This document shows positions 1-6,077 of a stretch of 20,354 nt of DNA, piece after piece (position 1 is the first letter of the stretch; every line of letters begins with the position of its first letter). A program made the translations under genes and the position numbers. Below the pieces are notes generated by a model. It saw only the letters and a list, made by a program, of their open reading frames with translations. It did not search any database and was not told where the DNA came from. The DNA is from a virus: positions 1 through 20,354 of IMG/VR virus record IMGVR_UViG_3300043449_000119. The stretch is one strand, 5' to 3'.

Positions 1-79
1 TCTTTACCATGTGGTACAGATTATTCACATACTCAGATGAGTATTTGTCACCCCATTTTATTGTTAGAAAGTTCATCAT
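1..79 (-). CDS. Second glycosyltransferase-like protein, N-terminal fragment (cut by window edge)
   Basis: Reading leftward from the ATG at 79-77 (or the adjacent ATG at 76-74) the frame stays open to the window edge, giving about 26 residues beginning MMNFLTIKWGDKYSSEYVNN. This resembles the start of the neighbouring 228-aa protein (LKYGTKYSKKDVDRI at its residues 7-21), so I read it as a second member of the same glycosyltransferase-like family. It overlaps the 3' end of that gene by 32 nt in a different frame, as expected for translationally coupled phage genes. The only Shine-Dalgarno-like match (AGGA, 96-93) sits rather far from the start, which is a weakness. The fold and catalytic residues lie outside the window, so the function comes only from the N-terminal resemblance. 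Confidence 0.6.
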   Translation of the reverse strand, partial: MMNFLTIKWGDKYSSEYVNNLYHMVK

Positions 80-734
80 ATTTTTTATCATATCCTGGAT
101 AATAATCTAAACCATTTAATAGACATACAGTATACTCTGGTCTATATCTATCTACAACTCGCTTCTCTGGATCGTAATAGTCTGCCCCATAAAGAAACGA
201 ATAGAACTCCCCCTTGGGAAACCACTTAAAGTCGAACTTTTCATGCCACAAAAATCTATCGTCACCCCAATATTTAATCATATAGTAATCAGCATCTTTT
301 TCAAAGTGTTCCCATATTGCCTTTGCTTTTGGACTACCAGAACGCCACAGAACAGCACTTGAATTATAATTACTAAGATATTGTTCGCTATATGAACGCG
401 CCTCTTTGTCAACCCAACTTATGTCCTTCCAATATGTATAGCATATTGTGGGGCATTCGTCAAGATAATTCCATAGATTATCGATATCTTTTTGTATTCG
501 GATATCAAGGTCAAAGTATAGAACATCACCCAAGCCCTCTAGACTATACATCCATATTTTAATGAATGTGCCATCGACATCTTTTGGGAGGGGAATTACT
601 TTTACTCTGGGATCCAAGTCTGTATCATCTGTGATACAGGCGTAATTATACTTACCACCAGTGGTTTCTATAATTCTGTCAACATCTTTTTTTGAGTATT
701 TTGTGCCATATTTTAGCATCAATATAGTTTTCAT
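48..734 (-). CDS. GT-A-like glycosyltransferase
   Basis: This 228-aa protein probably transfers a sugar from a nucleotide-sugar donor. The main evidence is a hydrophobic strand followed by an acidic DxD-type motif, VLYFDLDIRI (residues 71-80, D75-x-D77), the usual metal/nucleotide-sugar site of GT-A enzymes. Further in are an NSSAVLW segment (124-130), where such enzymes often bind acceptor, and a GDDRFLW segment (157-163). The N-terminus (KYGTKYSKKDVDRI) resembles phage-encoded family-8-like transferases. There is no signal peptide or membrane segment, so it should act in the infected cell's cytoplasm on phage DNA, virion proteins or host surface precursors; the target cannot be told. It is transcribed opposite to all structural genes, and a TATAAATA box on its strand (807-800) lies 66 nt upstream. 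It belongs to a pair with the truncated gene at 1-79. The family call is good; the substrate is unknown. Confidence 0.72.
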   Translation of the reverse strand: MKTILMLKYGTKYSKKDVDRIIETTGGKYNYACITDDTDLDPRVKVIPLPKDVDGTFIKIWMYSLEGLGDVLYFDLDIRIQKDIDNLWNYLDECPTICYTYWKDISWVDKEARSYSEQYLSNYNSSAVLWRSGSPKAKAIWEHFEKDADYYMIKYWGDDRFLWHEKFDFKWFPKGEFYSFLYGADYYDPEKRVVDRYRPEYTVCLLNGLDYYPGYDKKYDELSNNKMG

Positions 735-748
735 AGAACACCTAGGAT

Positions 749-756
749 TATAAATA
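749..756 (+). promoter_or_regulatory. T4-type late promoter for the 783 gene and fibre cassette
   Basis: Exact TATAAATA, the consensus of T4 late promoters read by the gp55/gp33-modified RNA polymerase. It ends 27 nt before the ATG at 783, so transcription would start near 762 and leave a leader of about 20 nt. Like five other exact copies in this window, it sits just upstream of a gene. Confidence 0.75.
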
Positions 757-782
757 AGTTCGAAAGATTAATAAGGGTTTTC

Positions 783-1112
783 ATGGCACAGGTTCAAAAT
801 ATTTATATTGATCAGGGAACTACATTTAGTCTGACTATTGGCGTCAACGATCAATTTGGAGACCCAAAAGACTTATCGGACTACGAGGCCGCGTCTCAAA
901 TGCGTAAGTCTTATTATACAAATACTGCAATAGATTTTACCGCAGAAATTTCTTCTCCTCTTGATGGCGAAGTTACCATATCTCTAACCGCAGAAGAAAC
1001 CTCGGCAATTAAAGCTGGCAGATATGTTTACGATATTGAAATAGTTAGTGCCGAAGAAACTCTTAGAGTTTTAGAAGGCATAGTAGTCGTTAATCCGGAG
1101 GTAACAAAATAA
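783..1112 (+). CDS. Small beta-rich virion-associated protein (BppU N-domain-like?)
   Basis: A 109-aa protein of alternating hydrophobic strands with no membrane segment. It opens with IYIDQGTTFSLTIGV, and its C-terminal part has TAEETSAIKAGRYVYDIEIV and LEGIVVVNPEVTK. The 'low-charge strand, DLSDYEAASQMRKS, S/T-A-E-E-T, AGRYVYDIE, GIVVVNPEVT' layout resembles the small N-terminal beta-domain of phage baseplate upper proteins of the BppU type and short proteins next to fibre genes in marine T4-like phages. It is first in the plus-strand fibre cassette, preceded by a late promoter (749-756) and an AAGGG ribosome-binding site. Its stop overlaps the next start by 1 nt (TAATG). A baseplate or fibre attachment role is inference. 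The minus-strand promoter at 800-807 lies inside its first codons. Confidence 0.6.
   Translation: MAQVQNIYIDQGTTFSLTIGVNDQFGDPKDLSDYEAASQMRKSYYTNTAIDFTAEISSPLDGEVTISLTAEETSAIKAGRYVYDIEIVSAEETLRVLEGIVVVNPEVTK
800..807 (-). promoter_or_regulatory. Minus-strand late promoter for the glycosyltransferase genes
   Basis: TATTTATA on the plus strand is an exact TATAAATA on the minus strand. It is the only exact minus-strand copy I found by eye, and it lies upstream of the only minus-strand genes, 66 nt before their ATG at 734. It falls inside codons 6-9 of the 783 gene and faces the plus-strand box at 749-756, so the two transcripts would overlap at their 5' ends. Function is inferred from sequence and position. 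Confidence 0.55.
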
Positions 1113-1327
1113 TGGCTATAAAAGTTACGGTACCGAATAGTAAAACTATAAATACAAATATCATTAGTAGAAAGGTAGCAGGTACAGTAGAAACACTGGC
1201 AAACGTTGATGCTGCTGGTCTACAAGATGGATATACTCTGATTTATAATTCTGAAACTAAAAAATGGGAAGCAGTTAATCCTGCCACAAGTGTTAGCTTA
1301 GATGCAATAGACGGTGGAACATACTAA
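1112..1327 (+). CDS. Small fibre-cassette protein ending in DGGTY
   Basis: A 71-aa protein with a clear ribosome-binding site (GGAGG at 1097-1101), coupled to the preceding gene by a TAATG overlap. Its middle contains LQDGYTLIYNSETKKWEAV (about residues 37-55), a pattern of 'DG-x-hydrophobic-Y-x-S-x-T-x-x-W' widely seen in phage tail-fibre and adhesin proteins. The last residues, AIDGGTY, match the end of the 550-aa fibre immediately downstream (NIDGGTY) and nearly match the end of the 67-aa protein at 3642. I infer a small structural partner of the fibres, possibly a tip or connector subunit. No enzymatic motif is visible. A TATAAATA sequence at 1147-1154 falls inside this gene and may be chance. 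Confidence 0.6.
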   Translation: MAIKVTVPNSKTINTNIISRKVAGTVETLANVDAAGLQDGYTLIYNSETKKWEAVNPATSVSLDAIDGGTY

Positions 1328-3869: not shown

Positions 3870-6077
3870 ATGGCAACGATTTTACAACTTAGAAGAGGTA
3901 CTTCCACACAACACTCGACATTTACGGGTGCTAACGGAGAAGTTACAGTAGATACTACAAAAAACACCATCGTCGTTCATGATGGTGAAACTGCTGGCGG
4001 TAGTCCTCTTGCAACAGAAGAATTTGTAACAACAAATCTTCAATCGGCAGATTCTTTGGGAGAACTTTCTGGTACAACAGATGATATTACAGAAGGGTCT
4101 ACTAATAAATTCTTCTCGAATACTCTTGCTCGTGGAGCATTTTCAGCTGGTACTGGTATTTCTATCACTGACGGTGCCATTTCTACTTCAATTACTCAAT
4201 ACACAGATGCACTAGCAAGAGCATCGGTCACTGTAACCGATGCAGGTGGCGACGGTTCGCTATCATATAACAATTCCACTGGCGTATTTACCTTTACTGG
4301 TCCAAGTGCAACCGATGTTCGCGCACATTTCAGCGCCGGAACTGGCATCGCTCTTACCAATGGTTCAATTGCAGTAGACTCAACTATCGCAACTAAAACC
4401 TACGCCGACAACGCAGCAACAACCGCAGTTGCCAACGTAATTGATACTGCACCAGAAGCGTTGAACACATTAAATGAACTTGCTGCGGCACTGGGTGACG
4501 ATGCAAACTTCTCGACAACGATTACTACCAGCATTGGTACTAAGCTAAATTCTTCCGCCGTTAGTGCTTTTGGTTTAACTCTTGTTGATGATGCCGATGC
4601 CGCAACCGCTAGAACTACATTAGGTCTAGGCACGGCTGCAACTACGGCTGCAACTGCTTATGCTACCGCTGCGCAGGGAACAAAGGCGGATGCTGCACTG
4701 CCGTCGGCAGACTTTAATAGCACTTTCGACACAAGATTAGGTCTAAAGTCTACTACAAATCTCACCGAAGGAACAAATCTATACTTCACGAATGCTCGTG
4801 CAAGAGGTGCAGTGAGTGCTTCTGGCGATTTAAGCTATAATAGCACAACCGGTGCATTTAGTTTCACTCAGGACAAAGCATTTAGTTCGCTGACAGGAAC
4901 TCCTACAACTCTTACGGGTTATGGTATTACAAATGCCTACACCAAAACAGAAGTTGACAGCGCGATTACAACTGCGATTGCTACCAAAGATAACAGTGAT
5001 GAGATTACAGAAGGTTCGACCAATCTGTATTTCACAACTGCTAGAGCAAGAAGTGCGATCAGCGCAGGAACTGGCATCTCTATTACAAACGGTGCAATTT
5101 CTACCACGATTACTCAATACACAGATGCACTAGCAAGAGCGGCTGTTTCAGTAACTGACTCTGGCGGCGATGGTTCACTGGCATATAATAGCATAACTGG
5201 TGTAATTACCTACACAGGACCTAGTGCGACGGATGTCCGTGCCCACTTTAGTGCTGGTACTGGTATTACAATCACCAATGGTGCAGTGGCAGTTGATTCG
5301 ACTATTGCTACAAAAACTTATGCAGACAATGCAGCAACAACTGCGGTTGCAGCGGTTATCGATGCTGCTCCAGCAACATTAGATACTCTTAATGAATTGG
5401 CCGCGGCGCTTGGCGACGATGCCAACTTCTCGTCCACTATCACAACTAGCATTGGTACTAAATTAAATTCCTCTGCCGTTAGTGCATTTGGTCTAACTCT
5501 AGTAGATGATGCAGATGCAGCAACTGCCAGAGCAACTCTCGGATTGGGAACTGCTGCAACTACTGCCGCCACTGCTTATGCTACTGCCGCTCAAGGCACC
5601 AAGGCAGATGCTGCACTTCCAGCAGCAAGTGTAAGTGTCTTCGGTGGTACGCTAATCGATGACGTAGACGCCGCCGCAGCTAGAACTACTTTGGGACTAG
5701 GCACCGCTGCAACTACGGCTGCAACTGCTTATGCTACCGCTGCGCAGGGAACTCTAGCAACCAATGCATTACCAGCAGCAAGTGTTAGTGCTTTCGGTCT
5801 TACATTGGTAGATGATGCATCTGCTAGTGCCGCAAGAACTACATTAGGTCTTGGTACTGCCGCAACTACGGCTGCTACGGATTATGCTACGGCAGCACAG
5901 GGAACTCTAGCAACCAATGCATTACCAGCAGCATCGTATACCGCGGCTGACGTTCTGACAAAAATCAAAACAGTTGACGGCGCTGGTTCCGGACTTGATG
6001 CTGACCTACTAGACGGCCAGTCAAGTGCATATTTCCGTATCAACATCTATGACTCCGCAGGGACACTATTGAACTAA
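3870..6077 (+). CDS. Tail fibre/adhesin with Mtd_N-like N-terminus, 735 aa
   Basis: Residues 1-50 (MATILQLRRGTSTQHSTFTG..., GEVTVDTTKNTIVVHDGETA) closely resemble the N-terminal domain of the BPP-1 tropism determinant Mtd. The shaft has two copies of a module of about 187 residues (92-278 and 398-584), including LNELAAALGDDANFS and SAFGLTLVDDADAATAR. Four TLGLGTAATTAAT repeats follow with L at 251, 557, 608 and 659, the last three exactly 51 residues apart. NLYFTNAR/NLYFTTAR occur at 303-310 and 385-392. The C-terminus carries VDGAGSGLDADLLDGQ (702-717), common near fibre tips, and ends YDSAGTLLN. There is no cysteine or lectin domain. The likely role is a receptor-binding side fibre. It has a TAGGAG ribosome-binding site, and the next gene starts 1 nt after the stop. 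Confidence 0.78.
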   Translation: MATILQLRRGTSTQHSTFTGANGEVTVDTTKNTIVVHDGETAGGSPLATEEFVTTNLQSADSLGELSGTTDDITEGSTNKFFSNTLARGAFSAGTGISITDGAISTSITQYTDALARASVTVTDAGGDGSLSYNNSTGVFTFTGPSATDVRAHFSAGTGIALTNGSIAVDSTIATKTYADNAATTAVANVIDTAPEALNTLNELAAALGDDANFSTTITTSIGTKLNSSAVSAFGLTLVDDADAATARTTLGLGTAATTAATAYATAAQGTKADAALPSADFNSTFDTRLGLKSTTNLTEGTNLYFTNARARGAVSASGDLSYNSTTGAFSFTQDKAFSSLTGTPTTLTGYGITNAYTKTEVDSAITTAIATKDNSDEITEGSTNLYFTTARARSAISAGTGISITNGAISTTITQYTDALARAAVSVTDSGGDGSLAYNSITGVITYTGPSATDVRAHFSAGTGITITNGAVAVDSTIATKTYADNAATTAVAAVIDAAPATLDTLNELAAALGDDANFSSTITTSIGTKLNSSAVSAFGLTLVDDADAATARATLGLGTAATTAATAYATAAQGTKADAALPAASVSVFGGTLIDDVDAAAARTTLGLGTAATTAATAYATAAQGTLATNALPAASVSAFGLTLVDDASASAARTTLGLGTAATTAATDYATAAQGTLATNALPAASYTAADVLTKIKTVDGAGSGLDADLLDGQSSAYFRINIYDSAGTLLN
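4143..5621 (+). repeat. Duplicated module of about 187 residues in the 735-aa fibre (4143-4703 and 5061-5621)
   Basis: The encoded residues 92-278 and 398-584 are very alike over their whole length, yet many codons differ synonymously, so the duplication is old or one copy has been recoded under protein-level constraint. The offset is 306 residues. Confidence 0.8.
4635..5752 (+). repeat. 47-bp exact repeat (4635-4681 and 5706-5752)
   Basis: An identical 47-base block encoding AATTAATAYATAAQGT occurs at 4635-4681 and 5706-5752, while the intervening copy of the same peptide (near 5552-5600) uses different codons. Exact identity at this distance suggests a recent recombination or gene-conversion event between repeat units. 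Confidence 0.8.
5481..5939 (+). repeat. Three tandem 153-bp (51-residue) fibre repeats
   Basis: Residues 538-588, 589-639 and 640-690 are three successive 51-residue units (x-x-F-G-x-T-L-x-D-D-x...ARxTLGLGTAATTAATxYATAAQGT...ALPAAS). A 36-bp block is exactly shared by 5745-5780 and 5898-5933. Confidence 0.8.

What the first reader, a model, noticed from the sequence alone, without database searches (positions are those of the whole stretch)
749..807. Face-to-face late promoters whose transcripts overlap
TATAAATA on the plus strand (749-756) and its exact minus-strand counterpart (800-807) point at each other, 43 nt apart. The minus box lies in the first codons of the 783 gene and is the only exact minus-strand copy I noticed, just upstream of the only minus-strand genes. 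Opposing late polymerases would collide, and the two mRNAs would have complementary 5' ends, so the pair could act as a late switch between adhesin and glycosyltransferase expression.
Basis: partly seen in the sequence, partly recalled or inferred. Interest (0 to 1): 0.58.

Follow-up and report, generated by a model that had tools for sequence, protein, structure and literature searches.

The report
Two opposed late promoters, one misplaced

Summary
The sequence observation is correct: TATAAATA lies at 749-756 (+) and 800-807 (-), 43 nt apart, and the minus copy is the only exact one in the window. The plus box is a strong late-promoter signal, invariant in 50 of 50 close relatives that keep the gene pair. 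Instead, 45 of 50 carry another minus-strand box, TTATAAAT[C/G/T], fused to the fibre gene's ribosome-binding site (window 766-773), 31-51 nt before the GT start. In this window that element reads TATTAATC; the window and four relatives lack it, and all five have the codon box. With the conserved element the two RNAs would abut rather than overlap. Face-to-face late boxes also sit between gp4 and gp48 (57 of 60 unique relatives) and between genes 4 and 53 of T4-type phage RB10, so the layout recurs in the T4 family. A late switch between adhesin and GT has no support. No expression data exist.

The parts
749..756 (+). Late-promoter box TATAAATA of the tail-fibre-assembly gene (predicted RNA start about 762)
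   Evidence: Invariant in 50 of 50 clade A regions; present 21-46 nt before the fibre start in 84 of 86 unique regions with the divergent GT; TATAAATA enriched 17.9-fold 12-62 nt upstream of genes in five relatives plus window (54 sense, 10 antisense, 3.0 expected)
766..773 (-). Position of the conserved minus-strand late-type box (relatives TATAAAT[C/G/T]); in this window TATTAATC, changed at 770
   Evidence: 45 of 50 clade A unique regions, 31-51 nt before the GT start; columns 767-776 are 94-100% conserved while the spacer 757-766 is 36-74%
773..777 (+). Shine-Dalgarno-like AAGGG of the 783 gene, fused to the minus box in relatives (ATTTATAAGGG)
   Evidence: ATTTATAAGGG in 43 of the 45 regions that have the box; TTTATAAGG before a start codon at only 5 of 783 gene starts, 4 of them this locus
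800..807 (-).
   Evidence: Exact in 14 of 50 clade A regions; middle column 803 is 36% conserved
48..734 (-). Glycosyltransferase-like gene, first gene of a minus-strand operon in relatives
   Evidence: phrog_1962 E 1.1e-10; run of six minus-strand genes at L164:10317-14544 in relative G001
783..1112 (+). Small tail-fibre-assembly-like gene
   Evidence: phrog_1084 and phrog_3304; 40-45% identical to proteins of cyanophages, Pelagibacter and Methylophilales phages in the rows listed
1147..1154 (+). Late box embedded in the 1112 gene: positive control for a conserved in-gene late box
   Evidence: Exact in 43 of 49 clade A regions, NATAAATA in 48 of 49; codons 11-14 show no synonymous variation while codons 2-10 do

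Best explanation
The 48-nt gap between the GT operon (-) and the tail-fibre-assembly gene (+) holds two face-to-face T4-type late promoters, recognised by the phage late sigma factor gp55. The plus promoter is the TATAAATA at 749-756. Because the boxes are only about 9 nt apart, the start sites abut (about 760 and 762): the RNAs diverge without overlap, but only one polymerase can open the site at a time, so the two promoters probably exclude each other mildly. In this window's lineage the minus box has decayed (TATTAATC); GT transcription then either starts weakly there or has moved to the exact box in the fibre codons at 800-807. Shown: sequences, positions, conservation, precedent layouts. 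Inferred: promoter activity, start sites, exclusion, takeover by the codon box.
For: Plus box invariant 50/50. Second conserved block ATTTATAAGG in 45/50, separated by a variable spacer. TTTATAAGG is not a general RBS of these phages: 5 of 783 gene starts, 4 being this locus. In L199 an 8-nt insertion separates the block from the fibre start, yet its distance to GT stays 31 nt. A -35-like TTGAA lies 18-20 nt away in most but 28 in L199 and is missing in L041, L045, L244 (counted by eye), which fits a -10-only promoter. Late sigma homologue in 4 of 5 relatives. The same layout occurs at gp4/gp48 in 57 of 60 and in RB10 between genes 4 and 53, where the opposing box is also fused to the SD (ATTTATAAGGAG). 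T4's listed late sites include single deviations from consensus, variant promoters are used in vitro, and late RNAs have either polarity (PMC2988020, passages).
Against: The minus element never has A at the last box position (0 of 45), although late promoters in this family keep it (NATAAATA, PMC2984593, passage); TATAAAT[C/G/T] upstream of genes is only weakly enriched (7 seen, about 2.7 expected, some of the 7 being this locus). In the more distant clade B, 15 of 36 unique regions show no minus box within one mismatch though the GT is kept. The block could partly be an RBS feature. No RNA data. The window itself lacks a good copy.
Confidence: 0.58

Rival explanations
1. The reader's box at 800-807 is the working GT promoter in this window and its close kin, giving opposed RNAs that overlap by 33 nt at their 5' ends. 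(This can be true of the window alongside the best explanation for the clade.)
For: Exact consensus; in the close clade 13 of 15 keep it and codons 6-8 have the lowest synonymous diversity of the gene (rank 1 of 103 three-codon windows). All 5 clade A regions that lack the RBS-fused box have it, against 9 of 45 that keep that box. Overlapping face-to-face late boxes exist at gp4/gp48.
Against: Exact in only 1 of the other 35 clade A regions. Low synonymous diversity at gene starts is common here (0.092 and 0.121 for two other genes, against 0.078 for these codons). The tree-aware test of the replacement pattern is inconclusive: 3 supported independent pairs, p 0.25-1. Codon usage alone gives the box with probability 0.31. 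It lies 63-67 nt from the GT start, at the far end of the usual range.
Confidence: 0.3
2. The conserved ATTTATAAGG block is only a translation signal of the fibre gene; the GT operon is transcribed from an unseen promoter inside the fibre genes or by host sigma-70.
For: AAGGG is a plausible SD; the last box base is never A; clade B keeps the GT without a consistent minus box.
Against: ATTTATA extends beyond the SD and is absent from nearly all other gene starts; it is kept at an SD-incompatible distance in L199; no minus sigma-70-like site was found in window 600-1000.
Confidence: 0.25
3. A late regulatory switch: colliding polymerases and antisense 5' ends choose between fibre and GT expression.
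Against: Pair not conserved (14 of 50); the conserved pair predicts no overlap (39 of 45 at 0 or less); at gp4/gp48 face-to-face boxes serve two structural genes.
Confidence: 0.05

Closest known systems
T4 late promoters (gp55/gp33/gp45-dependent, TATAAATA at -13 to -6)
   Same: Plus box and six other plus boxes match exactly; relatives encode a gp55 homologue
   Different: The conserved minus element differs at the last position (C/G/T), and in the window at two positions
Divergent gene 4 / gene 53 late region of T4-type phage RB10
   Same: Two face-to-face TATAAATA boxes 7 nt apart in a 47-nt gap, the opposing box fused to the SD of gene 4 (ATTTATAAGGAG), predicted starts not overlapping
   Different: Both boxes exact; both neighbours are structural genes; no GT operon
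gp4 / gp48 divergent pair of these phages and of cultured T4-like phages
   Same: Face-to-face NATAAATA boxes in 57 of 60 unique IMG/VR regions; face-to-face also in 5 of 6 cultured phages (there gene 4 with 48 or 53) when CTAAATA variants are allowed
   Different: Wider box spacing (10-32 nt) and predicted 5' overlaps of 0-22 nt

Membership tests
T4-type late promoter (plus box 749-756) | 8-bp TATAAATA box | tested here: met
   invariant 50/50
T4-type late promoter (plus box 749-756) | Position a few tens of nt upstream of a late gene | tested here: met
   26 nt before the 783 start; structural module by PHROGs and Pfam
T4-type late promoter (plus box 749-756) | Late sigma gp55 in the phage | tested here: inconclusive
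   Window is a 20-kb fragment; homologue in 4 of 5 relatives searched
T4-type late promoter (RBS-fused minus element) | NATAAATA, A at the last position kept | tested here: not met
   Last base C, G or T in 45 of 45; window TATTAATC
T4-type late promoter (RBS-fused minus element) | Conserved at promoter distance from the gene it serves | tested here: met
   31-51 nt before GT in 45 of 50 clade A regions
   14 of 50 clade A; 19 of 86 have an exact minus box in the fibre codons or start
T4-type late promoter (any of the three) | RNA 5' end 6 nt after the box, dependent on gp55 | not testable with these tools
   no expression data

The most novel reading that the evidence does not exclude
Face-to-face late promoters fused to the opposite gene's ribosome-binding site are a conserved device of T4-like phages for divergent late genes: mutual occlusion of the shared melting region sets a fixed ratio of the two transcripts, the GT-side box is held off-consensus so that the fibre side wins, and lineages that lose it recruit an exact box inside the fibre codons.
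Probability: 0.15. Interest if true: 0.6.

Novelty: new member of a known kind. Interest (0 to 1): 0.33.

Why it matters
It replaces a switch built on one chance-prone match with a testable layout: divergent late genes of T4-like phages repeatedly place two gp55-type boxes face to face in a gap of about 50 nt, sometimes merging one box with the other gene's ribosome-binding site. If active, occlusion between late promoters becomes directly measurable in a standard T4-type laboratory phage, where the gene 4/53 pair has the same layout.

Tried and rejected
Chance and codon explanations for the minus box were tested and largely account for it. Replacement of the RBS-fused box by the codon box looked strong when counted naively (5 of 5 against 9 of 45; about 0.001 worked by hand, ignoring descent) but the tree-aware test is inconclusive (3 supported pairs, p 0.25-1), so I do not claim it. 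Host sigma-70 on the minus strand: no site found in 600-1000 and the -35-like TTGAA is not kept at fixed spacing (by eye). A palindromic reading of the plus box itself as the GT promoter was considered and dropped because the start would fall only about 5 nt before the GT start codon (inference); two distant loci (L317, L326) do have an exact minus box 12 nt from GT. No record of the 50,697-record phage collection has a tblastn match to the GT at E 1e-5, and blastn of 1-1400 found nothing there. Paper searches that found no report of face-to-face or divergent T4 late promoters: (the library lacks most subscription journals). Papers were seen only as listings or passages, none read whole.

Full report
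OBSERVATION. The window is a 20,354-base linear virus record from a T4-like phage: terminase, portal, prohead protease and major capsid proteins match T4-type Pfam families, and sheath, scaffold and tube match PHROGs. The nearest cultured capsid proteins in the rows listed are 63-67% identical (Methylophilales phage Melnitz, Pelagibacter phages Mosig and HTVC008M, cyanophages). TATAAATA occurs eight times against 1.23 expected, seven on the plus strand and one on the minus strand at 800-807.

THE PLUS BOX. In five relatives plus the window (783 upstream regions), TATAAATA lies 12-62 nt upstream of a start codon 54 times on the sense strand, 10 on the antisense strand, 3.0 expected. In 89 unique fibre-gene regions, 86 have a divergent GT; the plus box lies 21-46 nt before the fibre start in 84 of 86, missing in L076 and L077. 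In the 50 regions nearest the window (clade A: GT phmmer E of 1e-75 or better, plus two with truncated GT) all eight columns are invariant. A gp55 homologue is found in 4 of 5 relatives.

It is made of codons 6-8 (AAT ATT TAT) of the 783 gene. It is exact in 14 of 50 clade A regions; column 803 is among the least conserved of the stretch (T 18, A 11, C 11, G 10). Among 28 clade A regions that encode N-I-Y there, 14 have the box, against 0.31 expected per region from codon usage in the rest of the gene, but 13 of the 14 belong to one close clade of 15. In that clade the box codons vary least in the gene; however the first codons of two other genes vary about as little, so a gene-start effect explains much of it. 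A good contrast is the plus box inside the 1112 gene: exact in 43 of 49 clade A regions and NATAAATA in 48 of 49, with no synonymous change in its codons while the preceding codons vary freely.

A DIFFERENT MINUS ELEMENT. The gap contains one more conserved block, ATTTATAAGG (window 767-776), 94-100% per column next to a spacer at 36-74%. On the minus strand it reads CCTTATAAAT followed by C, G or T. It is present in 45 of 50 clade A regions, 31-51 nt before the GT start; other intergenic late boxes in these genomes lie mostly 16-59 nt before a start. The block includes the fibre gene's SD but is not a general RBS: TTTATAAGG stands before only 5 of 783 starts, 4 of which are this gene. In L199 it stays 31 nt from GT although an insertion moved it 8 nt away from the fibre start. 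In the window one base (770) differs from the consensus block and the box reads TATTAATC. Five regions lack it (window, L047, L052, L056, L059); all five have the exact codon box, against 9 of the 45 others. The tree-aware test has only three supported pairs and cannot decide.

GEOMETRY. Taking the box at -13 to -6 (PMC1524935, passage), the plus RNA starts near 762 and the conserved minus RNA near 760: they abut. Predicted overlap is 0 or less in 39 of 45 regions.

WHAT IT SERVES. In relative G001 the GT is the first of six tightly packed minus-strand genes, three of them matching phrog_1962 glycosyltransferases; similar runs follow it in G003, G004 and G006. Such an operon needs a promoter in or just beyond the gap.

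PRECEDENT. The same genomes have a second divergent late pair, gp4 head closure (phrog_218) and gp48 tail tube cap (phrog_230). Face-to-face NATAAATA boxes lie between them in 57 of 60 unique regions, box gaps 10-32 nt, predicted 5' overlaps 0-22 nt. In six cultured phages examined, five are face to face when CTAAATA variants are allowed (S-RIM8, ACG-2014a, Melnitz-2, RB10, phiM19; exact TATAAATA on both strands only in Melnitz-2 and RB10) and KVP40 is the other way round. In T4-type RB10 the opposing box is fused to the SD of gene 4 (ATTTATAAGGAG), the same construction as at the GT/fibre gap.

AGAINST MY READING. The minus element never has A in the last position (0 of 45), TATAAAT[C/G/T] is only weakly enriched before genes (7 against about 2.7), and 15 of 36 clade B regions keep the GT with no minus box within one mismatch. 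It may therefore be a weak promoter, or partly a translation signal. Nothing here is expression data.

VERDICT. Observation confirmed; interpretation partly supported. The layout is a new member of a known kind (T4-type late promoters of divergent genes). My searches of the paper library found no description of it, which does not show that none exists.

Noticed in passing
window 1147-1154 (+): A late box embedded in the 1112 gene, about 202 nt before the 1357 gene, exact in 43 of 49 close relatives with invariant codons; a likely in-gene late promoter for the 1357 structural gene.
   Followed up: yes
L163:3658-3695, L171, L185, L196, L180 and loci L343-L420: Face-to-face NATAAATA boxes between head closure gp4 and tail tube cap gp48, 57 of 60 unique regions, predicted RNA 5' overlaps 0-22 nt.
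   Followed up: partly
L170:6261-6272 (same kind of site at G004 4474-4485): Palindrome TATTTATAAATA that holds an exact late box on each strand, in L170 between two divergent genes.
   Followed up: no
L164:10317-14544 (-): Six-gene minus-strand operon with three phrog_1962 glycosyltransferases plus three proteins with no PHROG match; the window's copy of its first gene has no tblastn match among cultured phages.
   Followed up: partly
L197:14537-14656 (-): The only other gene start of 783 with TTTATAAGG at its RBS; it also contains TATTTATA, an exact box on the other strand, but no close divergent gene.
   Followed up: partly
window 3870-6077 (+): Large repetitive tail-fibre-like protein with an N-terminal Mtd_N domain (Pfam E 4e-14).
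   Followed up: no
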